DNA of 64,000 nt, taken from Chloroflexota bacterium. GTDB lineage: Bacteria; Chloroflexota; Dehalococcoidia; Tepidiformales; Tepidiformaceae. Shown here in pieces: positions 1 through 42,051 of this stretch. The notes below the pieces were generated by a model. That model was not told where the DNA came from. It worked only from the letters and a program-made list of their open reading frames with translations, and did no database searches. A program made the position numbers and the translations under genes. The first letter of the stretch is position 1. Each line of letters starts with the position of its first letter. Location of the stretch: the NCBI GenBank assembly GCA_016234445.1, contig JACRBT010000012.1:1-64000 (forward strand), given 5' to 3'.

Positions 1-1
1 C

Positions 2-168
2 GCGCCGGTAGTCCCACCCCCCGTGCCGCCGAGTCGAGCCCCGACCTCACCCACACCGCGCCCCATCCGTACCGCGACCGCGAGGGAGCGGCGCCGGTAG
101 TCCCACCCCCCCAAGCCGCCGAGTTTCACACCACACCCCATCCGTACCGCGACTGGAAAGGAGCGGCG
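2..168. repeat. Degenerate tandem repeat, about two units of 80-90 bp
   Basis: Two units can be aligned by eye. Each begins GCGCCGGTAGTCCCACCCCC (at 2 and 91), continues to GCCGCCGAG, and later carries CCCCATCCGTACCGCGAC (from about 61 and 136). The array runs off the left edge, so its copy number is unknown. The end of unit 2 (GACTGGAAAGGAGCGGCGTC, about 152-171) recurs as its reverse complement near 419-440 and 757-778, so array pieces are scattered in both orientations. There is no credible coding potential. Confidence 0.7.
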
Positions 169-207
169 TCCCCCGTGCCTCCGCCGCCAGTTCCCCGGGA
201 GCCCGCC

Positions 208-235
208 CGGCGCTGAGGTCGGGAACTCAGCGCCG
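208..235. other. Perfect 10-bp stem-loop
   Basis: CGGCGCTGAG (208-217) pairs perfectly with CTCAGCGCCG (226-235) around an 8-nt loop. There is no U-run, so it is not a classical intrinsic terminator. It lies inside the repeat-rich non-coding block. Confidence 0.5.
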
Positions 236-418
236 CTCCCGGAGTCGCGGTATGGATCTACGACTCGGACCCATTTCGCCGTGCCACGACTGTAAAGGAG
301 TGGTCTTCCCGCCCGCCTCCACCGTCCGTTCCCGGGAACCCCCTCCCGGCGCATCATCGGGTTCCGACCAACCACCCCCTCACGTCCGCGACCCCGACCC
401 TGGTGTGATGACACCACC

Positions 419-483
419 GACGCCGCTCCTTTCCAGTCGCGGTGCGGATCGCGCCACCCCTCGGACCTCGGACCTCGGAACTC
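419..483 (+). repeat. Dispersed direct repeat, copy 1
   Basis: The element starts GACGCCGCTCCTTTCCAGTC, passes through GCGCCACCCCTCGG and ends in a short (CGGACCT)n tract followed by AACT. It is nearly identical to 757-834. The first 20 bases are the reverse complement of the end of the left-edge tandem unit. Confidence 0.65.
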
Positions 484-568
484 GGAACCCGGAGCTCCCC
501 CCTGCCACCTCCCCCTTCCACCTCCCCCACCCACCCCACGACCATCGATTCATGTCTGCGTCCCCCCG

Positions 569-600
569 CACTCGGACCTCGGACCTCGGACCTCGGAACT
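569..600 (+). repeat. Heptamer microsatellite (CGGACCT)n
   Basis: About four tandem copies of a 7-bp unit CGGACCT end in CGGAACT. Similar shorter tracts end both dispersed repeats (near 460-483 and 796-832), and a decayed version follows rsfS near 28255-28290. Confidence 0.6.
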
Positions 601-608
601 GGCCCCCG

Positions 609-631
609 ACGCGTTCAACGCGTGTTTTTTT
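609..631 (+). terminator. Possible intrinsic terminator
   Basis: ACGCG (609-613) and CGCGT (619-623) flank TTCAA and are followed by a seven-T run at 625-631. The stem is short, so this is tentative. A second T-run preceded by a similar TTCAA context lies near 684-692 without a stem, suggesting another duplicated segment. Confidence 0.35.
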
Positions 632-756
632 CTTCCGCAGCGCGGCTCGGCACCTCCCATGGGGCGTCGAGACGACTTCAACTCATGTTTTTTTCTCGCG
701 CGGCCGCTTCGACCCCAGATCGGCGGCCGTCGAGAGAAAAACTGGCGGGCGGGGGC

Positions 757-834
757 GACGCCACTCCTTTCCAGTCGCGGTGCGCATGGCGCCACCCCTC
801 GGGCCTCGGACCTCGGACCTCGGACCTCGGAACT
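757..834 (+). repeat. Dispersed direct repeat, copy 2
   Basis: This is the second copy of the 419-483 element, with a longer (CGGACCT)n tail of about four units and ending AACTGG. It lies about 340 bp downstream of copy 1. It precedes the start of the first gene by about 80 bp, so any promoter for that gene must lie within or just after it. Confidence 0.65.
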
Positions 835-912
835 GGTGGCACCCGCCAGCCGCCAGCCGTATGGAACCTCCCGGCGCTGTCCGGCGTTATTCTGGGCAGG
901 AGGTGTAACCCG

Positions 913-2577
913 GTGACTAACGGCGGCGCCTTCGACCCGGAAGTGGATGGACTGACCCCGGGGGAGCAGCACGTCCTTGCGATGATCCGCGAGGGGCGGC
1001 TCGACGCGGAGATCGCCGTCCGCCTCGGCGTCTCCGTCGGGGACGTCAAAGAGCGCATCCAGCGGATCCTCCGGAAGCTGGAGCTGGACGAGCGCCGCGA
1101 CCTGCTTAACCCCAACGCCGAGCGCCGGGTCTCGATCGTCGAATCCGAGGTGATCATCGGCGGGCCGGAGGAAGTCATCATCGGGGGATCCGGGCCGGTG
1201 CAACCGCCTGGGCGCGTGGCCTGGACGGTGCTCGCGGCGAAGGTCGCCGGCGGCGCGGTGCTCCTCGGCGCGGGCATCTTCGCGGCGGGCTGGGCGTGGT
1301 CGATGGACGAGCCGTCCCCGGGCGGGAACGGGCGGGACGCGTCCGCGCCGGCCGAAACGAGTACACCCGCCCCGGCGGACGCGACGAAGGACGCGGTCAT
1401 CGTCGACGGGCCCCTGGCGGTGACGGCAACTCCAACCGTGTTCGTCGTGAACGGCATCCCGGCGCCGGAGATGAAGGTCACCGAATCCGCGATCTTCCCC
1501 GAGAGCCTCGTGCTTTACGTCCTGAACACGGGAATCGCGCCCGACCCCGGGCAGGGCACCGGGTTGTTCCGGGTCTACCGCCTCGGCGGGAAGACCTATT
1601 CCGACCGCGTCTTCCCTCCAGCCGGCGTCACGGGCCAGGTCCTTATGGCGGCGGCGCAGGCCGACGGTTCGGACATCGTCGTCGCCGTCTGCACGCGGGG
1701 GACTTGCCTGGGGCGGGGGGTCGACCCGGACTCCGAGGCAACGTACTACCGCTCGCGGGACGGCGGGATCACCTGGGCTGTCGACTTCGTGTTGGCCCGG
1801 GGCTTCAGCGTGATGGGCGTCAGCCAGGGCCGCGTCCTCGTCCAGCAAGCGATGGTGACGTCGACGGCGCGCTGGCTGGTGGTCGAAAACGGGGTCTTCA
1901 GGGAGCTCACGCCGCCGACGCTGAACCTGCGCTACACGCCCCAACGCCCCTACCTTGGGAGCGACGGCAAGGTGGTCTGGTTGGCGGACACGGCTGTCCT
2001 GGACGAAGACGGCCGGTTCCTGTTCGGCGTTCCGATGACGCTGGTTGTCTCGCTGACCCCGTATCCGCGTGGGTGGGTGGTGAGCGGGACTTCGCCGGGT
2101 GCAACGCCGCCAGCCATCCTGACGTGGGGACCGGGCAGCGAGGCTCAGCGCGCGGCGGCGACACCGGGACTGCTATTCCCGGCGGCATTCTCGGACGTTG
2201 ACCTGGGTGCGGGCACGGCCGACGCGAGTTCTTCGTCGGCGATCGGCACCGGGCGATCGGGCCAGCAGTTCCCGGTCCTCATCCACATGTCCTCCGGGAC
2301 ACTGCAGGTGCTGACGGACCCGTTCGTCGAGCCGCCCTTCCGGGGGCTGGCGAACCGGGTGATCGCCGCCAGGTTCGCCTCGTTCGCGCGGGTAAACACG
2401 CCGGGCGACTGCCTCAACATCCGGGAGGGACCGAGCACTGCCGAGCCGGTCATCACCTGTGTGCCCGACGGGGTCCTGCTGACCCTCAGCGGAACCTCCG
2501 CGCCGCCGGCGTTCCTGCACGCCCAGGCGCCGGATGGGCGCTGGGGGTACGCCGCCATGGAGTACCTGATCCGCTGA
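913..2577 (+). CDS. Transmembrane one-component regulator: LuxR-type HTH, TM helix, Asp-box and SH3-like outer part
   Basis: The 554-aa protein probably starts at GTG 913 behind AGGAGGTGT; the frame stays open far upstream, but that DNA is repeats. Residues about 13-65 form a GerE/LuxR-type HTH (LTPGEQHVLAMIREGRL, DAEIAVRLGVSVGDVKERI). One hydrophobic segment follows (about 97-120, VAWTVLAAKVAGGAVLLGAG), then a Pro/Ala-rich linker and a large outer domain. That domain contains an Asp-box (SRDGGITW), typical of beta-propellers of the BNR/sialidase class, and ends in a bacterial-SH3-like segment (CLNIREGPSTAEPVITCVPD). I infer a ToxR/CadC-style direct membrane sensor-regulator using a LuxR-type HTH. 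The next gene, 31 bp downstream, is a paralogue of the outer part. The ligand is unknown. Confidence 0.8.
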   Translation: MTNGGAFDPEVDGLTPGEQHVLAMIREGRLDAEIAVRLGVSVGDVKERIQRILRKLELDERRDLLNPNAERRVSIVESEVIIGGPEEVIIGGSGPVQPPGRVAWTVLAAKVAGGAVLLGAGIFAAGWAWSMDEPSPGGNGRDASAPAETSTPAPADATKDAVIVDGPLAVTATPTVFVVNGIPAPEMKVTESAIFPESLVLYVLNTGIAPDPGQGTGLFRVYRLGGKTYSDRVFPPAGVTGQVLMAAAQADGSDIVVAVCTRGTCLGRGVDPDSEATYYRSRDGGITWAVDFVLARGFSVMGVSQGRVLVQQAMVTSTARWLVVENGVFRELTPPTLNLRYTPQRPYLGSDGKVVWLADTAVLDEDGRFLFGVPMTLVVSLTPYPRGWVVSGTSPGATPPAILTWGPGSEAQRAAATPGLLFPAAFSDVDLGAGTADASSSSAIGTGRSGQQFPVLIHMSSGTLQVLTDPFVEPPFRGLANRVIAARFASFARVNTPGDCLNIREGPSTAEPVITCVPDGVLLTLSGTSAPPAFLHAQAPDGRWGYAAMEYLIR

Positions 2578-2608
2578 TTCCTGAACCCTAACCCGGCGCC
2601 GTCGTACC

Positions 2609-3964
2609 ATGCGGTGCGTGACGGAGCAGCCTTCGAAGCCACGGTCCCGGAAGCTGATGGCGGCGTTCCTCCTGGGTGTGCTGGCGTTGACGGCGGCCCT
2701 GGTCGGCGTGGCCTACCTCACCGGCGGCGATGACGGCCGGCCCGGCGGCGACGGCGACTCGGCGAAGCCCGTGACGGTCGACGGGGTGACCTTCCTCCCC
2801 TGGAAGGTCGGCGACCCCGCGCGCTTCCCCGACAACCTCGCGGTGATCGTCAAGCAGGGCTGCTTCGACTGCGCGCCGCCGGGCAACCGGGTGCGCTGGG
2901 TCGGCCGCGTGAGCCGCGACGCCATCGGCACCATCCGCACCGAGACGCTCTTCGCCGCCCGCCCGTCCCAGGCGCTGACGTCGGGCACGCCGATCCCCGA
3001 GGGCGCCTACATCCTCGAAGTCGCCGCCCGTGACGACGCCAGCGAGATCGTCGTCACGGTCTGCGTCACCGGCGGCTGCAGCCCCGAAGACCGGCTGGTC
3101 CCGAACCCGGAGACGGTGCTCTACCACTCGACCGACGGCGGCGCGACGTGGTCGGAGTTCGGGCGGCCGGGGGGCACGGCGCGGGCGGTGCTCGTGGCGC
3201 GCGATGGCGTGGTCCTGGCCACGTACGGCGCCGCGAACCCGACCTACTCGCTCTTCCCCGGGAACCAGCCGCTTTCGCCCCCGAACGGGATCAAGGACGC
3301 GCGGATCCAGGTGACCCCCACGGGCGAGATCGCCTGGGTGGGGACTGACGCCGCGGGGACGCTCCGGCTGATGACGGCGACGACGGGCACGCCGCTCCCG
3401 GCGCTGCTGGCGAAGGCGACGCCGGTCCCGCCGGTCTACTTCCTCGACGACGGCCACCTGGTCACGATCTCGGAGATCCAGAGCCAGCGCGACGCGGACG
3501 ACTGGCCGCGCTACAACGCCGTCTCCACGCTGGAGGGGAAGGTCGACCGCGGCTTCACGGGCGCGCGGGTGGTGCCGATCGCGGCGATTGGGGGCGGTGT
3601 CGTGATCGGCGACATCACCCTGCCGCCCGGGAACCGGACGACCGTCCCCGTCGCGGATCTCCCGGGGCTCATCGACTACAACACCGGGACGTTCAGCCCG
3701 ATCACGGTCCCCTTCGCGGGGCCGGGAGAGCACACGCCCGCACGGGTGATCGCGGCGATGAGAGGGCCGTTCGTGCGCGTGGTCCGTCGCGACGGCTGCG
3801 CGGAGGTGCGGGCCGAGTCGTCGCCGCAGTCGAAGGTGTTGGCCTGCTACCCGGCGAACGTCCTCCTGAAGCGGGCGGCGAGCGGCGACATCCAGGGGTG
3901 GTACGCGGTGACGACGCTCGACGGCAAGCCGGGCTTCGTCGCGCTCGAGCAGGTGGAGCGGTAG
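2609..3964 (+). CDS. Membrane-anchored Asp-box/SH3-like protein, paralogue of the upstream sensor
   Basis: The protein has 451 aa from ATG 2609; an in-frame GTG at 2618 is an alternative start. After a basic N-terminus (SKPRSRK) comes one TM anchor (LMAAFLLGVLALTAALVGVA) and a long outer region. An Asp-box (STDGGATW) and a C-terminal SH3-like segment (CAEVRAESSPQSKVLACYPA) match the order of motifs in the gene before it, but there is no HTH. The short gap suggests one transcript. The outer domain could bind cell-wall material or a shared ligand, but no enzyme motif is visible. It is convergent with ribH. Confidence 0.75.
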   Translation: MRCVTEQPSKPRSRKLMAAFLLGVLALTAALVGVAYLTGGDDGRPGGDGDSAKPVTVDGVTFLPWKVGDPARFPDNLAVIVKQGCFDCAPPGNRVRWVGRVSRDAIGTIRTETLFAARPSQALTSGTPIPEGAYILEVAARDDASEIVVTVCVTGGCSPEDRLVPNPETVLYHSTDGGATWSEFGRPGGTARAVLVARDGVVLATYGAANPTYSLFPGNQPLSPPNGIKDARIQVTPTGEIAWVGTDAAGTLRLMTATTGTPLPALLAKATPVPPVYFLDDGHLVTISEIQSQRDADDWPRYNAVSTLEGKVDRGFTGARVVPIAAIGGGVVIGDITLPPGNRTTVPVADLPGLIDYNTGTFSPITVPFAGPGEHTPARVIAAMRGPFVRVVRRDGCAEVRAESSPQSKVLACYPANVLLKRAASGDIQGWYAVTTLDGKPGFVALEQVER

Positions 3965-3975
3965 CGGCGGAGACC

Positions 3976-4446
3976 TTAGCTCCCGGAGATGAGGCGGCGG
4001 AGGTTGGCCATCTCGATGGCAGCCTGGGCAGCTTCCTCGCCCTTGTGCCCGTCCTTGCCACCGGCACGGGCCATCGCCTGCTCCACGGAGTCGACCGTGA
4101 GGACGCCGAAGATGACGGGGACGCCGGTCTCCTGCGCGACCTGGCGGATGCCCTCGGTGGCGCCGCCGGCGACGTACTCGAAGTGGGCGGTCTCGCCACG
4201 GATGACAGCGCCGAGGCAGACGACGGCGTCGAACCTGCCGCTTTCGGCCGCCCACTTCGCCGCGGTCGGGACTTCGAAGGCGCCGGGGACGCGGGCGACG
4301 GTCACGTCCTCGTGGTGGAGGCCGCGTTCGCGGAGGCACGAGACGGCGCCTTCGAGCAGCTTCTCGGTGACGAAGCCGTTCCAGCGGGCGACAACGACGC
4401 AGACGCGGAGCCCGGCGCCGTCGAGGGAACCTTCGAGTTCGGGCAC
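3976..4446 (-). CDS. ribH: 6,7-dimethyl-8-ribityllumazine synthase
   Basis: The 156-aa protein is full length for RibH. It condenses 3,4-dihydroxy-2-butanone 4-phosphate with the ribityl-aminopyrimidine to give lumazine, the penultimate step of riboflavin synthesis. Family signatures are present: VVARWNGFVT near the N-terminus, VPGAFEVP, CLGAVIRGETAHFEYV and FGVLTVDSVEQAMARAG, with the expected His after ETA. The start is GTG at 4446, two bases after the ribBA stop, so translation is probably coupled. It is the last gene of the FMN-riboswitch operon. Confidence 0.95.
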   Translation of the reverse strand: MPELEGSLDGAGLRVCVVVARWNGFVTEKLLEGAVSCLRERGLHHEDVTVARVPGAFEVPTAAKWAAESGRFDAVVCLGAVIRGETAHFEYVAGGATEGIRQVAQETGVPVIFGVLTVDSVEQAMARAGGKDGHKGEEAAQAAIEMANLRRLISGS

Positions 4447-4448
4447 GG

Positions 4449-5684
4449 CTATTCGCCCCCGCCGAGGGATTCGAGGCCGTCGAGGATGTGGCCCATGCGG
4501 CGGCGCTTGGTGTCGAGGTAGCGGATGTTGAAGGGGTTGGGCTCAGTCTCGATGGCGACGCGCTCGACGACTTCGAGACCGTAGGCTTCGAGGCCAGCGC
4601 GCTTGGCCGGGTTGTTGGTGATCAGCCGCATCTTGCGGACGCCGAGGTCGACGAGGATCTGCATGCCGATGCCGTAGTCGCGGCGGTCGGCGGGGAAGCC
4701 GAGAGCGATGTTGGCCTCGACCGTGTCCATGCCCTGGTCCTGGAGCTCGTAGGCGCGGAGCTTGTTGTGGAGGCCGATCCCGCGGCCTTCCTGCCGCATG
4801 TAGAGGAAGACGCCGCCTTCTTCGCCGATCATCTTGAGGGCGCGGTCCTTCTGTTCGCCGCAGTCGCAGCGGAGGGAACCGAAGACGTCGCCGGTGACGC
4901 ACTGGTCGTGGACGCGGACGAGGACGGGCCGGTCGCCGTCGATTGGCCCCTTGACGATGGCGACGTGCTCGTCGGGGCCGGTCTCGGCCTTGTAGGCGAG
5001 GATCATCATCTCGCCGTAGGGGGTCGGGAGCTTCGTTTCGGCCACGCGGCGGATGAGGCGCTCGGTGCGGAGCCGGTACTTGATCATGTCGGCGACGGTG
5101 ACGATGCGGAGGCCGTGGCGGCGGGCGAAGCGCTTGAGGTCGGGCATGCGCGCCATTTCGCCGTCCATCTTCATGATTTCGCAGAGGACGCCGGCGGGGT
5201 AGAGGCCGGCCATCTTGGCGAGGTCGACGCTGGCTTCGGTCTGGCCGGCGCGGACGAGGACGCCGCCGTCGCGGGCGCGGAGGGGGAACATGTGGCCGGG
5301 CCGGACAAGGTCTTCGGGGCCGGCTTTGGGGTCGATGAGGACCTGGACGGTGCGGGCGCGGTCGGCGGCGCTGATCCCGGTGGTGACGCCGGTCCGGGCT
5401 TCGACGGAGACGGTGAACGGCGTCCCGAACTGGGAGCTGTTGTCCTGCGCCATCATCGGGAGCTTGAGGGTGGCGACGCGCTCTTCGGTAATCGGGCAGC
5501 AGACGAGGCCGCGGCCATACTTGGCCATGAAGTTGATGGCGTCGGGGGTCACGAACTGGGCGGCCATGACGAGGTCGCCTTCGTTCTCGCGGTCCTCGTC
5601 GTCGGTGATGATGACGAACTTGCCGCGGCGGTACTCTTCGATCGCCTCGGGGACGGTCATCATGACGTTGTCGCGTTCAGGCAT
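4449..5684 (-). CDS. ribBA: Bifunctional 3,4-DHBP synthase / GTP cyclohydrolase II
   Basis: The 411-aa protein joins an N-terminal RibB domain (DDEDRENEGDLVMAAQF acidic motif, HMFPLRARDGGVLVRAGQTE) to a C-terminal RibA domain (HDQCVTGDVFGSLRCDCG zinc site with three Cys, then RQEGRGIGLHNKL). It makes both early precursors of riboflavin, from ribulose-5-phosphate and from GTP. The ATG overlaps the ribE stop as ATGA, which supports this start over the much longer open frame. No ribD, for the deaminase/reductase step, lies in the window. Confidence 0.96.
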   Translation of the reverse strand: MPERDNVMMTVPEAIEEYRRGKFVIITDDEDRENEGDLVMAAQFVTPDAINFMAKYGRGLVCCPITEERVATLKLPMMAQDNSSQFGTPFTVSVEARTGVTTGISAADRARTVQVLIDPKAGPEDLVRPGHMFPLRARDGGVLVRAGQTEASVDLAKMAGLYPAGVLCEIMKMDGEMARMPDLKRFARRHGLRIVTVADMIKYRLRTERLIRRVAETKLPTPYGEMMILAYKAETGPDEHVAIVKGPIDGDRPVLVRVHDQCVTGDVFGSLRCDCGEQKDRALKMIGEEGGVFLYMRQEGRGIGLHNKLRAYELQDQGMDTVEANIALGFPADRRDYGIGMQILVDLGVRKMRLITNNPAKRAGLEAYGLEVVERVAIETEPNPFNIRYLDTKRRRMGHILDGLESLGGGE

Positions 5685-6271
5685 CAGTGTTCCCCCCGTC
5701 CCGCGACGAACTGTTCGACGTAGCGGGCGATGATGTCGGTTTCGAGGTTGATGCGGTCGCCGGGCTTCCGCGTGTGAAGGTTCGTGTGTTCCTGGGTGTA
5801 CTGGACGAGCGAGACCGAGAAGGAGGCTTCGTCCTTCGCGATGATCGTGAGGCTGATGCCGTCGATGCAGACGGGGCCCTTGACCACCATGTAGCGCAGC
5901 AGCTCGGCCGGGGCGTTGAAGCGGGCGATGATCGCTTCGCCTTCGGGGGTCATCGAGTGAAGGCTGCCGACGCCTTCGACGACGCCGCGGACGATGTGGC
6001 CGCTGAGGCGATCCGAGGGGCGGACGCTGCGCTCCAGGTTGACGAGGTCGCCGGCCTTGAGTTCGCCCAGGTTCGAACGGCGGTACGTCTCGGGCATCAG
6101 GTTGGCGAAGAAGACGTCGCCGTCGATCTCGGCGACGGTGAGGTCGACGCCGTTGATGGCGATGGAGTCGCCGAGGTGGGCGTCGGAAAGGACGTGGGGA
6201 GCGCGGATGTAGAGGTACCCTTCGCCGGCGCGGGTGACGGCGCCGACCTCTTCGATGATGCCGGTGAACAT
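5684..6271 (-). CDS. ribE: Riboflavin synthase, alpha chain
   Basis: The 195-aa protein is a normal length. Two repeated lumazine-binding barrels are visible: MFTGIIEEVGAV at the start and SGHIVRGVVEGVG near residue 90. SIAINGVDLTV and VCIDGISLTI are the matching motifs of each half. It dismutates two lumazine molecules into riboflavin. The start is the MFTGI ATG; the open frame extends upstream into the riboswitch leader but without a family signature. It is the first gene of ribE-ribBA-ribH, and the leader holds an FMN riboswitch. Confidence 0.95.
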   Translation of the reverse strand: MFTGIIEEVGAVTRAGEGYLYIRAPHVLSDAHLGDSIAINGVDLTVAEIDGDVFFANLMPETYRRSNLGELKAGDLVNLERSVRPSDRLSGHIVRGVVEGVGSLHSMTPEGEAIIARFNAPAELLRYMVVKGPVCIDGISLTIIAKDEASFSVSLVQYTQEHTNLHTRKPGDRINLETDIIARYVEQFVAGRGEH

Positions 6272-6375
6272 CAGGCGTGCCCCCTCTGTGGGAGGAGAGT
6301 ACCCGGCTGGGAATGGAGAGAGTGCACGCGCGGCCCCCGTCGGAGAAATCGGTGCTCGCGGGGGACGAGGGGAGA

Positions 6376-6396
6376 GTGCGCGAATGCGCCGCGCAC
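6376..6396 (-). promoter_or_regulatory. Stem-loop in the rib leader, possible expression-platform part
   Basis: GTGCGCG (6376-6382) pairs with CGCGCAC (6390-6396) around 7 nt, between the FMN aptamer and ribE. There is no U-run, so control at translation initiation or by another factor is as likely as intrinsic termination. The assignment is tentative. Confidence 0.3.
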
Positions 6397-6425
6397 CCGC
6401 CGGCAATGCGGCAGGAGCGCGTACT

Positions 6426-6540
6426 GTCCTCTCCCATCCGGACTGTACCGTCGGCCCCGGAATCTCACCGGGTCAGTCCGCTTGCGCGGAGTCGCGGGCT
6501 TTCACCGCCGGTGGGGAATTGCACCCCGCCCCGAGAACAT
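6426..6540 (-). promoter_or_regulatory. FMN riboswitch (RFN element)
   Basis: Read on the minus strand, the conserved RFN blocks appear in order: TCGGGGCGGGGTGCAATTCC, ACCGGCGGTGAAAGCCCGCG, GACCCGGTGAGATTCCGG, GCCGACGGTACAGTCCG and GATGGGAGAGGA. These form the six-stem FMN aptamer. It lies about 155 nt upstream of ribE and should lower expression of the whole rib operon when FMN is plentiful. Confidence 0.96.
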
Positions 6541-29584: not shown

Positions 29585-29612
29585 TGTCAGATCCGGTATA
29601 GGATGTCTGACA
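29585..29612 (+). promoter_or_regulatory. Operator and leaderless -10 of the second toxin-antitoxin module
   Basis: TGTCAGA (29585-29591) and TCTGACA (29606-29612) are perfect inverted repeats 14 nt apart. They flank TAGGAT (29599-29604), which is 7 nt before ATG 29612. The layout fits autorepression by the antitoxin. Confidence 0.6.
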
Positions 29613-29869
29613 TGACGATGAAGCCAAAGGCGGTCTACGTCCGGGTGGGGAAGCGCGCCCAGGTGGTGATCCCCGCGCAGCTGCGCCGGGAGATGGGGAT
29701 CGACGAGGGCGACACGCTCCTGGCCAGCGTGGACGATTGCGGGCAGCTGGTGCTGAAGCCGGTGCCGAGCGACCCGGTCGAGCGCTTCCGGGCGGCCTGG
29801 AAGGGCGTGTTCGAGGGCGTGGACGCGGACGCCTACATCCGCGAACTCCGCGATGAGTGGGAGCGGTGA
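29612..29869 (+). CDS. AbrB-type antitoxin
   Basis: The protein has 85 aa from ATG 29612; ATG 29603 is also in frame but lies within the -10/operator. The AbrB/MazE-like domain reads VYVRVGKRAQVVIPAQLRRE followed by MGIDEGDTLLASVD. The acidic tail (FEGVDADAYIRELRDEWER) probably neutralises the toxin. Its stop overlaps the toxin start as GTGA, matching the first VapBC module. Confidence 0.88.
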   Translation: MTMKPKAVYVRVGKRAQVVIPAQLRREMGIDEGDTLLASVDDCGQLVLKPVPSDPVERFRAAWKGVFEGVDADAYIRELRDEWER

Positions 29870-30291
29870 GCCCGGCGGACCTGCCGGGATTCCTCGGGCT
29901 GGACACGAATTGCCTGATCTACCTGCTTGAGGGGCAATCGGCCCAGCGCCAGGCGGTGATGGAGCGCGTGATCCATACGGGCAGGCGGTCGGTGGTTTCC
30001 ACGCTCGCCGTCGCGGAGATGCTGGTCGCTCGCTTCCGTCGCACAGATGAGAATTCTTCCGACGCCCTGGCGGCAATCGAAGCGCTACCGGGGCTGGAGA
30101 TCGTTGCAGTTGACGTGGCGGTAGCCGCCCGCGCCGCCGCGATCCGCGCGGAGACGGGACTCAAGCTCCCGGACGCGGTGCACGTTGCCACGGCTCTGTA
30201 CTCCGGCGCCGAGGGGTTCCTGACGAACGATATCGCGGTTGCCCGGGCGGACGTCGGGCTACCGGTGTTCCTGGTCGACTCGCTGACCTGA
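29866..30291 (+). CDS. PIN-domain ribonuclease toxin (VapC-like)
   Basis: The protein has 141 aa, with GTG 29866 supported by GGGAG and the 4-bp overlap with the antitoxin. PIN residues are Asp in LGLDTNCLIYLLEG, Glu in TLAVAEMLVARF and Asp in LKLPDAVHVATALYSGAEGF followed by TNDIAVAR. It is predicted to cleave RNA with a divalent metal. It shares the fold but little sequence with the toxin at 19409. Confidence 0.88.
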   Translation: MSPADLPGFLGLDTNCLIYLLEGQSAQRQAVMERVIHTGRRSVVSTLAVAEMLVARFRRTDENSSDALAAIEALPGLEIVAVDVAVAARAAAIRAETGLKLPDAVHVATALYSGAEGFLTNDIAVARADVGLPVFLVDSLT

Positions 30292-37017: not shown

Positions 37018-37221
37018 ATGCCCCGCGTAAGTGTTGAGATTGACGCCGCGACCCTGCACCGGCTCCTGCAGGAGGCGGAGGCGCGGGATGTGACGGTAGA
37101 GACCCTCCTCGCGGAGGTTGCGGCGGAGCACGCCGGGCGGGCCGACCCGTCACGGGCGCCGGCGATGGCACGCGCCCACCTCCAGCGCTTTCCGGAGCTG
37201 TTCCCGAAGCTGGCGGAATGA
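37018..37221 (+). CDS. Small hypothetical protein, 67 aa
   Basis: It is a short charged helical protein (VSVEIDAATLHRLLQEAEAR, VTVETLLAEVAAEHAG). The N-terminal strand followed by two helices could be a ribbon-helix-helix antitoxin-like fold, but this is a guess. Its own TAGAAT -10 and a normal codon pattern support it as a gene. It borders the lower-GC island that follows. Confidence 0.6.
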   Translation: MPRVSVEIDAATLHRLLQEAEARDVTVETLLAEVAAEHAGRADPSRAPAMARAHLQRFPELFPKLAE

Positions 37222-37229
37222 GCTGGCTC

Positions 37230-37255
37230 TACTACTTGACAGCCTGTAGTACATT
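37230..37255 (+). promoter_or_regulatory. Palindromic operator and -10 of the phosphoribosyltransferase-DprA pair
   Basis: TACTAC (37230-37235) and GTAGTA (37246-37251) are perfect inverted repeats 10 nt apart, with TTGACA between them (37236-37241). TACATT (37250-37255) overlaps the right arm and is 6 nt before ATG 37262. Confidence 0.55.
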
Positions 37256-37261
37256 TGTTCT

Positions 37262-38059
37262 ATGCCTAGGCCTTGGGAAGTCGTGTGGTTCCCGGAACAT
37301 GACGTGGTCATCGAGCCCGGGTTCGTCCGGGCACGGTTCATCACGGAGCATTGCTGGCTGCCGACGGACATGGCGGAGTCCATTCTGCAGGGCGCAGCCG
37401 GGACGCGGGTGTCCGTGACTTACGGGCCAGATGGTTGGTACAACGCGATTGCCGTCCCGCAAGGGGATCCCGGCGACCTGATGGCCCAGCTCGAAAGTTT
37501 GTTCTCTGGGCTTGTCATGCTCCCGGAGCACATGGGTGGGCCAGACATGGCATTTGCGCTCGACTGGTACACCGAGCTCGGATCCGCCCTTGACTACACC
37601 GACACCGGGCGACTCGAACGCAGAGCGAAGTGGAGTGACAACAGCCAGGCGGCGGGAACACTCGCGGCCAAGATGGCCAGCTACGCCGCACATCACGAGA
37701 GAATAGCCGCTAGCGGGATGGTCCTGGTCGTCGAGTCATCTCACTCGCTCTCTAAGGATCTCGGCACAGCGGTAGCCAGTCGGCTGGGAGTCCCTCTTGC
37801 GGTGTGCACCAAGATAGACCGCCAGCACAGGCAACGGGATGCGACCTCCGAACGGGAGTTCCAGGACATTTTTCAGAGCCCTCGGGGCCGCTGGGAACTT
37901 CCATCCGGCCGGCTTCCGAGCACCGTAGTTGTGATCGATGACCTCTGCAGATCTGGCGGCACCCTCGCAGAGGTTGCAAGATGCCTAAGGGAAAGGGGGG
38001 TGGACCGGGTTTGGGCACTGGTTGCCGTCAAATCCGTGAAACACCAACGGCAAACATGA
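37262..38059 (+). CDS. Phosphoribosyltransferase-fold protein paired with a DprA-like gene
   Basis: The protein has 265 aa. The C-terminal half has a type I PRTase core: the PRPP loop VVVIDDLCRSGGTLAEVARC near residues 224-243, with upstream VVESSHSLSKDLGTAVASRL as a plausible pyrophosphate-loop region. The N-terminal 130 residues match nothing I know and lack the zinc finger of ComF. The gene is lower in GC than its surroundings (about 60-62% in two 60-bp samples, against about 68% for one in gdhA). Its stop overlaps the DprA-like start (ATGA). It may act on a nucleotide or on DNA; the function is unknown. Confidence 0.75.
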   Translation: MPRPWEVVWFPEHDVVIEPGFVRARFITEHCWLPTDMAESILQGAAGTRVSVTYGPDGWYNAIAVPQGDPGDLMAQLESLFSGLVMLPEHMGGPDMAFALDWYTELGSALDYTDTGRLERRAKWSDNSQAAGTLAAKMASYAAHHERIAASGMVLVVESSHSLSKDLGTAVASRLGVPLAVCTKIDRQHRQRDATSEREFQDIFQSPRGRWELPSGRLPSTVVVIDDLCRSGGTLAEVARCLRERGVDRVWALVAVKSVKHQRQT

Positions 38060-38901
38060 ACGTACCCACCACTATCGCCGACTGGCTCTCCGTCTACGAC
38101 GGCGGTGAGACAGACGCCAGCACCCTCCGTCGTCTGAGTGAAGTCGCTACCCCTCCCGCTCCGGTGGAAGCCGACCCGGCCATCTGGTCAGCTGCCGCCA
38201 CCCTGGAGGTGGTTAGCTGGCTGTCTCCGCGATTTCCAAGCGCGCTCAAGAAGCTGAAGTCCCCTCCGGCAGTCTTATGGGCTCTTGGCGATGTCGAACT
38301 GCTGACGGCGCCTGCGGCCAGCCTCTGCGGATCCCGGAATGCTTCCGACCGAGGGCTCCGATGGGCGCGACTCGTCGGTGAGTCCGTGGCAGCAGCGAAC
38401 CTCACGTTAGTAACCGGGATGGCAAGAGGTGTGGATGCGGAGGCCGCTCGCGCTGCCATCGACGCCGGAGGCCGGTGCATAGGGGTTCTGGCAGAAGGAG
38501 CGAAGGCTTGGGCGGGGCGTCGATGGGCACGCGACATCGAACAGGGGCGTCTCCTGATCGTCTCGGAGTTCGCACCTTCAACGCGCTGGGCGGTCCCACG
38601 AGCGATGCAACGGAACTCAACGATCTGCCTCTTGGGCGGACTCATGTTGGTCATCGAGGCGGGCGAACGCGGTGGGACTCTGGCCGCGGGTCGTACGGCC
38701 TTGCGGCTCGGAGTTCCGCTCTACGCGCTGAGATCCCAAGATCCCGTTCCCGGAAACGAGATCCTCGTCCGGGAAGGGGCTCGCCCTCTTGAGACGACGG
38801 GCCAGTTGACGAGCGTGCTCCGTGAGGCGCCAACTGGGCCTCTCTTGGCCGCGACCAGCGATGCCCAAGAACCTGTCCGCCAGCCGGCACTACTCCGGTA
38901 G
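38056..38901 (+). CDS. DprA/Smf-like protein (SLOG/LOG-type Rossmann domain)
   Basis: The protein has 281 aa from ATG 38056. The DprA core is complete: SLCGSRNASDRGLRWA, LVTGMARGVDAEAARAAIDA, SEFAPSTRWAVPRAMQRNS, VIEAGERGGTLAAGRTAL and PGNEILVREGARPL. There is no C-terminal winged helix as in some DprA proteins; about 80 unrecognised residues precede the core. Canonical DprA loads RecA on ssDNA during transformation. Pairing with a PRTase in a foreign-looking island suggests a specialised, possibly defence or nucleotide-sensing, version (inference). Confidence 0.8.
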   Translation: MNVPTTIADWLSVYDGGETDASTLRRLSEVATPPAPVEADPAIWSAAATLEVVSWLSPRFPSALKKLKSPPAVLWALGDVELLTAPAASLCGSRNASDRGLRWARLVGESVAAANLTLVTGMARGVDAEAARAAIDAGGRCIGVLAEGAKAWAGRRWARDIEQGRLLIVSEFAPSTRWAVPRAMQRNSTICLLGGLMLVIEAGERGGTLAAGRTALRLGVPLYALRSQDPVPGNEILVREGARPLETTGQLTSVLREAPTGPLLAATSDAQEPVRQPALLR

Positions 38902-41490: not shown

Positions 41491-42051
41491 CTACTCGAGC
41501 ACTATGGTTGGGCCGGGTAGAGCCGGGCTTAGGGGCCGCACCATGTGGATATCCGTCGGCTCCAGCTCGAACATCTGTGGATTCGGGGTGTCGGTCGGTC
41601 GAAAGCCCTGGCTGAGATAGAAGCCCACGGCTGATTCAGATTCCGTTGCTGAGACATAGAGCTCATCGGCCCCGCGCTCTTCGGCCATCGCAACAACCGT
41701 TCGTACCAACTGACGGGCGAGACCCTTTCGGCGATGCGCCCGGTCGATATGCAACGTGGTCAATTGGGCTAATCGGGGCGCAAGCTGATAGCGCAGAGAG
41801 GCGATGCCAGCCATCTGCTCTCTCACAAACGCGCCCAGCCAGGCATCCGGCTTGAGATTGGTGCGCCATTCTGCCAATCGTTCCTGCCAGTGCGCCTGGT
41901 CCCATCGCGGGCGCTGCCCGTCGTGAGGTTCGGGCCGGAGCTGACCATCGACCCATCGATAGATCAGCGTGATGTGCTCGGAGAGGTCGATCTCGTGCAG
42001 CCGGTCGAAGTCTGATTCTTCGAGGAGGCGAATGACGAGCCGATCAGTCAT
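41491..42051 (-). CDS. GNAT N-acetyltransferase
   Basis: The 186-aa protein has the acetyl-CoA loop LHIDRAHRRKGLARQLVRTV and, after it, ELYVSATESESAVGFYLSQG, the usual strand-helix before the last beta strand. The substrate is unknown. Codon use is less GC-biased than in the neighbours (it contains TTG, CAA and ATA-type codons), hinting at transfer. The 223 bp upstream to the crotonase stop hold no gene that I can support. Confidence 0.82.
   Translation of the reverse strand: MTDRLVIRLLEESDFDRLHEIDLSEHITLIYRWVDGQLRPEPHDGQRPRWDQAHWQERLAEWRTNLKPDAWLGAFVREQMAGIASLRYQLAPRLAQLTTLHIDRAHRRKGLARQLVRTVVAMAEERGADELYVSATESESAVGFYLSQGFRPTDTPNPQMFELEPTDIHMVRPLSPALPGPTIVLE

What the first reader, a model, noticed from the sequence alone, without database searches (positions are those of the whole stretch)
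37230..38901. Phosphoribosyltransferase-DprA pair in a lower-GC island
A PRTase-fold gene with an unknown 130-aa N-terminal domain overlaps by 4 bp a complete DprA/SLOG-type gene. Two 60-bp samples of the PRTase gene gave about 60% and 62% GC, against about 68% for one sample of gdhA. The pair has its own palindromic promoter and sits between housekeeping metabolic genes. ComF-DprA are linked in competence, but this PRTase lacks ComF's zinc finger. SLOG proteins are known nucleotide sensors in conflict systems, so a defence or DNA-entry control role is plausible.
Basis: partly seen in the sequence, partly recalled or inferred. Interest (0 to 1): 0.65.

Follow-up and report, generated by a model that had tools for sequence, protein, structure and literature searches.

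The report
PRTase-DprA toxin-antitoxin pair, helicase-less
Two overlapping genes in this environmental bacterium look like a known kind of self-poisoning anti-phage switch (a nucleotide-metabolism toxin held in check by a DprA-like partner), in a compact form that lacks the DNA helicase usually fused to this type of toxin.

Summary
A 265-aa phosphoribosyltransferase (PRTase) gene (37262-38059 +) overlaps a 281-aa DprA/SLOG gene (38056-38901 +) by ATGA, in the lowest-GC stretch of the window. The genome has a canonical dprA and a zinc-finger comF elsewhere, so this is an extra, accessory pair. The DprA protein falls with full support (100/99) in the clade of PsyrA/RqlI antitoxins, the partners of RecQ-PRTase toxins. 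It lies apart from canonical DprA and from phage ShosA. Gene order (toxin first) is also that of rqlHI/psyrTA. The PRTase keeps the PRPP loop (IDDLCRSGGT) but lacks the RecQ helicase, carrying about 90 uncharacterised residues instead. In Dehalococcoidia the same short-PRTase plus DprA pairing occurs in at least 13 of 294 sampled genomes, inserted singly among housekeeping genes, while ComF-type PRTases there lack an adjacent dprA. Most likely function: a PRPP-using toxin that disturbs nucleotide pools or DNA, neutralised by its DprA-like antitoxin and released during phage attack or DNA stress. Toxicity, antitoxicity and phage defence were not tested. This is a new variant of a known kind.

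The parts
37230..37251 (.). inverted repeat TACTAC-N10-GTAGTA upstream of the operon, candidate operator (weak)
   Evidence: Direct reading and shuffle test: arms of 6 or more in 4.4% of shuffles; no sigma-70 consensus
37262..38059 (+). PRTase-fold gene, proposed toxin (265 aa)
   Evidence: Pfam Pribosyltran 8.2e-10; PADLOC PsyrT 2.9e-9 on its C-terminal PRTase part only (the genome's own ComF also hits PsyrT); tree with DprA-linked short PRTases 95/93, away from ComF
37262..37540 (+). N-terminal region of about 92 aa, predicted b-b-a-b-b-a, no known family; takes the place of the RecQ helicase
   Evidence: AF2 model, low confidence; no Pfam hit; sequence homology to other short toxins' N-termini not significant (11 of 300 shuffles as good)
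37925..37966 (+). PRPP-binding loop VVVIDDLCRSGGTL; D226 and D227 invariant
   Evidence: Alignments
38056..38059 (+). ATGA stop/start overlap (translational coupling)
   Evidence: Sequence
38056..38901 (+). DprA-like gene, proposed antitoxin of PsyrA/RqlI type (281 aa); no winged-helix domain found
   Evidence: PsyrA 167.6 bits against ShosA 108, reverse of the canonical DprA's 92.5 against 220.9; below the TIGR00732 cut-off, 115.6 of 191.15; DprA tree 100/99
38197..38802 (+). DprA Rossmann/SLOG core with GSRNAS, GMARGVD, AMQRN and ERGGTL motifs
   Evidence: Pfam, PADLOC and alignments

Best explanation
A toxin-antitoxin pair of the PRTase-DprA kind, with a PsyrA/RqlI-type antitoxin and a short toxin without the RecQ helicase. 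Shown here: the gene pairing, its conserved linkage in relatives, the clade membership of both proteins, an intact PRPP loop, and accessory distribution. Inferred: the PRTase consumes or misuses PRPP and nucleotides (as reviewed for ShosT), causing nucleotide imbalance, DNA damage and growth arrest. The translationally coupled DprA-like protein binds the PRTase domain and keeps it inactive (as RqlI does with RqlH). Phage replication, single-stranded DNA or replication stress sensed by the DprA-like partner frees the toxin, giving abortive infection.
For: DprA tree: window DprA groups with G011 (99/95) inside a 19-row clade (100/99) that holds RecQ-PRTase-linked PsyrA/RqlI proteins (E. coli plasmid, Meiothermus, G014, G103) and excludes canonical DprA, the genome's own included, and phage ShosA. 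PRTase tree: window toxin in a 10-row clade (95/93) of DprA-linked short PRTases; 16 ComF rows, the genome's own included, form a separate clade (99/100). Linkage: 11 short PRTases in Dehalococcoidia all have a DprA gene next to them, whereas 17 lower-scoring ComF-type loci examined have none; also G011 and G060. PADLOC: all 12 aligned toxins match PsyrT and all 12 antitoxins match PsyrA and ShosA. Gene order toxin then antitoxin as in rqlHI; phage ShosTA-type loci are antitoxin first. RqlHI biology: the PRTase domain is required for toxicity, D663 in the PRPP pocket is needed, and RqlI interaction needs the PRTase domain (PMC4670107). A DprA+PRTase pair defends against T7 and lambda (PMC9122126). 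ShosT/ShosA mechanism per the review PMC12593503. Accessory: only G011 of 40 relatives has a close DprA homologue, with different neighbouring genes.
Against: No experiment on this pair. In E. coli, the isolated PRTase domain of RqlH was not toxic (PMC4670107), so a helicase-less form may need its N-terminal region or act differently. The PsyrT and ShosA profile hits alone are not diagnostic, because the genome's own ComF and canonical DprA hit the same models. No defence genes nearby. In one genus (g49) the pair sits between the same gene families in 5 genomes, so some copies are stably inherited. The window and G011 PRTases have long branches.
Confidence: 0.77

Rival explanations
1. A competence or DNA-processing accessory pair: a diverged ComF-like PRTase and a second DprA that help handle incoming single-stranded DNA.
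For: ComF and DprA act in natural transformation; the PRTase core belongs to the same superfamily as ComF (ComF also hits PsyrT).
Against: The genome has its own canonical dprA with winged helix (TIGR00732 235 bits) and zinc-ribbon comF; both window proteins fall outside those clades; rare distribution in the family.
Confidence: 0.07
2. A non-toxic stress-signalling or nucleotide-salvage pair: the PRTase makes a nucleotide-like signal or salvages bases during DNA stress, and the DprA/SLOG protein senses the product.
For: PRTase active-site loop intact; SLOG folds bind nucleotides (general knowledge); found alone among metabolic genes, and at one conserved setting in a genus; the RqlH PRTase domain alone was not toxic (PMC4670107).
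Against: Patchy, accessory distribution and clade membership with experimentally toxic systems.
Confidence: 0.13
3. A decaying remnant of an RqlHI/PsyrTA system that lost its helicase and is no longer functional.
For: Helicase absent; composition atypical.
Against: Both ORFs intact with an exact ATGA overlap; catalytic D226/D227 and antitoxin motifs kept; the same helicase-less form recurs in 13 genomes.
Confidence: 0.03

Closest known systems
RqlHI / PsyrTA (RecQ-like helicase-PRTase toxin plus DprA-like antitoxin)
   Same: Antitoxin in the same clade (100/99); toxin-antitoxin gene order; homologous C-terminal PRTase with PRPP loop
   Different: No RecQ helicase; toxin 265 aa instead of about 690; antitoxin shorter, without the C-terminal HTH
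ShosTA (PRTase toxin plus DprA-like antitoxin, common in phages)
   Same: Helicase-less PRTase paired with a DprA-like protein; weak ShosT hit (0.0023); ShosA structure 9vzo is a homologue (1e-10)
   Different: Gene order reversed in the phage loci examined; ShosA in another clade; ShosT-type PRTases score poorly against the short-toxin profile
ComF and DprA of natural competence
   Same: Shared folds and families
   Different: No zinc ribbon, no winged helix, different clades; canonical copies present elsewhere in the genome

Membership tests
PsyrTA / RqlHI | DprA-like antitoxin of the PsyrA/RqlI clade | tested here: met
   Tree 100/99; PsyrA 167.6 bits over ShosA 108, the reverse of canonical DprA
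PsyrTA / RqlHI | Toxin is a RecQ-like helicase fused to a PRTase | tested here: not met
   265-aa protein aligns only to PsyrT 538-686 of 689; no helicase in or next to it
PsyrTA / RqlHI | Intact PRPP-binding acidic pair in the PRTase | tested here: met
   D226/D227 invariant
PsyrTA / RqlHI | Toxin gene upstream of antitoxin gene in an operon | tested here: met
   ATGA overlap, PRTase first
PsyrTA / RqlHI | PRTase toxic alone, neutralised by the DprA-like protein | not testable with these tools
   Needs expression assays
ShosTA | Antitoxin of the ShosA clade | tested here: not met
   Phage ShosA rows form a separate 97/98 clade
ShosTA | Helicase-less PRTase partner | tested here: met
   but ShosT profile match weak, 0.0023
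Canonical DprA | TIGR00732 equivalog score at or above 191.15 | tested here: not met
   115.6 bits; the copy on C8 scores 235.3
ComF | Zinc ribbon and membership of the ComF clade | tested here: not met
   No CxxC; outside the 99/100 ComF clade
Anti-phage defence system | Reduces phage infection | not testable with these tools
   Only a related DprA+PRTase pair was shown to protect (PMC9122126)

The most novel reading that the evidence does not exclude
A distinct third branch of PRTase-DprA toxin-antitoxin systems, centred on Dehalococcoidia, in which a small new N-terminal domain replaces the RecQ helicase as the module that targets or activates the PRTase toxin, showing that the helicase is a swappable input module.
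Probability: 0.4. Interest if true: 0.55.

Novelty: new variant of a known kind. Interest (0 to 1): 0.42.

Why it matters
RqlH's PRTase domain is needed but not sufficient for toxicity in E. coli, so what the helicase contributes is open. A natural branch that keeps the same antitoxin clade but has no helicase is a direct way to ask what the PRTase and its N-terminal module do. It also extends this toxin-antitoxin kind to poorly studied Chloroflexota, where general profile libraries label the genes only as 'phosphoribosyltransferase' and 'DprA' and where they could be mistaken for competence genes.

Tried and rejected
Housekeeping comF/dprA copy: rejected, canonical copies found on C10 and C8. 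Phage or plasmid carriage of the PRTase: no tblastn hit; viral-contig scans with the PRTase and the three-row DprA alignment empty; the wider DprA alignment gave one distant ShosTA-type locus. Genome-wide pattern scan with the PRTase alone gave nothing. Clean empty-site comparison: not possible, because the flanking acyl-CoA dehydrogenase and zinc dehydrogenase are not neighbours in the relatives examined. Fold of the N-terminal region: AF2 with 4 sequences gave pLDDT 60, and Foldseek no significant match; weak resemblances to uL23-like or ACT-like domains are below significance and not claimed. N-terminal homology across short toxins: not significant for the window protein. Defence island: no PADLOC match among 15 neighbours. 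Small ORF 37018-37221: only sub-threshold CopG/RHH similarity, not included. PADLOC PsyrT/ShosT/ShosA hits as sole evidence: rejected after the control with the genome's own ComF and DprA. The original paper on psyrTA (Sberro 2013) is not held, and the primary paper on the ShosTA mechanism (Pu 2025) did not turn up in the searches; the latter is cited through a review.

Full report
Observation. The two genes are real and intact: PRTase 37262-38059 (265 aa) and DprA-like 38056-38901 (281 aa), overlapping by ATGA. The pair has 63.9% GC against 69.5% for the window, lower than all but 0.3% of equal-sized windows, and GC3 of 0.68-0.71 against 0.89-0.93 for most neighbours. One other gene nearby, the GNAT gene at 41491-42051, is equally atypical. 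The uncharacterised N-terminus is about 92 residues rather than 130, because homology to other PRTases begins at the ALDWY motif near residue 93. The claimed promoter palindrome is a 6-bp inverted repeat that 4.4% of shuffles match, and no sigma-70 consensus was found.

Setting. The window lies in contig C18 of a 3.5-Mb genome in the same family as G011, a Tepidiformaceae (Chloroflexota) MAG. The same genome carries a canonical DprA with winged helix (235 bits against a cut-off of 191) on C8 and a zinc-ribbon ComF-family protein on C10. The pair is therefore extra, not the housekeeping copy. Only one of 40 relatives, G011 (OY282446.1), has a close DprA homologue (50% identity), with different genes beside it. 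The flanking acyl-CoA dehydrogenase (orthologues at 74-84% identity in 22 other family genomes) and zinc dehydrogenase (9 others) are not neighbours of each other in the relatives examined, so no clean empty site could be read. None of 15 neighbouring proteins matches PADLOC, so there is no defence island here.

What it is. PADLOC profiles point to PsyrT/PsyrA and ShosT/ShosA, which are toxin-antitoxin and anti-phage systems. A control was needed, because the genome's own ComF also matches PsyrT and its canonical DprA also matches ShosA. Three tests do discriminate. First, the window DprA prefers PsyrA (167.6) over ShosA (108), whereas canonical DprA shows the reverse (92.5 and 220.9). Second, a DprA tree places the window protein with G011 (99/95) inside a 19-row clade (100/99) that contains the antitoxins of RecQ-PRTase systems (E. 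coli plasmid NZ_OX030731.1, Meiothermus, G014, G103) and the antitoxins of short PRTases, and excludes canonical DprA and phage ShosA proteins. One RecQ-linked DprA, L020, fell outside this clade. Third, a PRTase tree places the window PRTase in a 10-row clade (95/93) of DprA-linked short PRTases, with 16 ComF rows apart (99/100).

Linkage. In 294 Dehalococcoidia genomes, profile A1 found 11 further short PRTases, each with a DprA gene directly beside it (called at 223-244 aa in ten, 348 aa in the eleventh), while the 17 ComF-type loci examined have no adjacent DprA. With the window and G011, that makes 13 genomes. G060, outside the class, has the same arrangement. RecQ-fused versions with a DprA next door occur in the same phylum (G014, G103), in Meiothermus and on an E. 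coli plasmid inside a type I restriction operon. Phage ShosTA-type loci have the reverse gene order.

Mechanism. The PRTase keeps the PRPP loop VVVIDDLCRSGGTL; its two aspartates are invariant among relatives. In RqlHI, the PRTase domain is required for toxicity, a D663A change in the PRPP pocket abolishes most of it, and co-immunoprecipitation with RqlI depends on that domain (PMC4670107). A DprA-PRTase pair from a P2-like phage protects against T7 and lambda, and the authors propose that DprA senses phage DNA and unleashes the PRTase (PMC9122126). A 2025 review states that ShosT acts as a PRTase and pyrophosphatase that disturbs purine metabolism, and that ShosA binds DNA (PMC12593503). By inference, the window PRTase is the toxin and the DprA-like protein the antitoxin and probable sensor. 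Direct evidence for this pair is lacking.

What is different. The toxin has no helicase. The isolated PRTase domain of RqlH was not toxic in E. coli (PMC4670107), so the N-terminal 92 residues may supply what the helicase supplies there. AF2 (4 sequences, pLDDT 60) suggests a b-b-a-b-b-a arrangement, and Foldseek found no significant match. Sequence similarity of this region to those of other short toxins is not significant for the window protein (11 of 300 shuffles score as high), so a shared domain is suggested only by position, length and predicted secondary structure.

Verdict. The pair works like, and its antitoxin belongs with, PsyrTA/RqlHI, but it fails that family's helicase feature and ShosTA's antitoxin-clade feature, so it is filed as a new variant of the PRTase-DprA toxin-antitoxin kind.

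Noticed in passing
L148 (G531:C118) 2628-6051; L152 (G557:C63) 1-3075: In G531 the related PRTase-DprA pair sits inside the ATP synthase operon, between an atpD-like and an atpC-like gene; in G557, another family, it lies directly upstream of an atpC-like gene with an IS-type transposase on its other side. Gene names are from reading the sequences.
   Followed up: partly
L149, L151, L153, L154, L155: In one genus (g49) five genomes carry the pair between the same gene families (a 386-aa repeated gene and an 880-aa CoA-transferase-like gene), suggesting vertical inheritance there.
   Followed up: partly
window 29603-30291: A MazE/AbrB-type antitoxin gene followed by a PIN-domain gene, a likely VapBC-type toxin-antitoxin pair about 7 kb upstream.
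   Followed up: no
L030 5728-8413: A Chloroflexi MAG has DprA, a HAD-hydrolase-like gene and a PRTase-like gene in a row, a possible three-gene variant.
   Followed up: no
L062 3837-5903: A viral contig encodes a 377-aa ShosT-like protein (122 bits) followed by a ShosA-like DprA, near a phage-type integrase.
   Followed up: partly
L061 (NZ_OX030731.1): An E. coli conjugative plasmid carries a RecQ-PRTase plus DprA pair between the S and R genes of a type I restriction system.
   Followed up: partly
L026 (Tepidiforma flava) 5348-6450: A 201-aa PRTase with almost no N-terminal extension next to a DprA-like match, a further minimal form in the same family.
   Followed up: partly
window 41491-42051: A GNAT acetyltransferase gene 3 kb downstream has equally low GC (61.0%, GC3 0.695), another possible recent arrival.
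   Followed up: no
window 37018-37221: A 67-aa ORF between the acyl-CoA dehydrogenase and the pair, with only sub-threshold similarity to CopG/RHH antitoxins.
   Followed up: no
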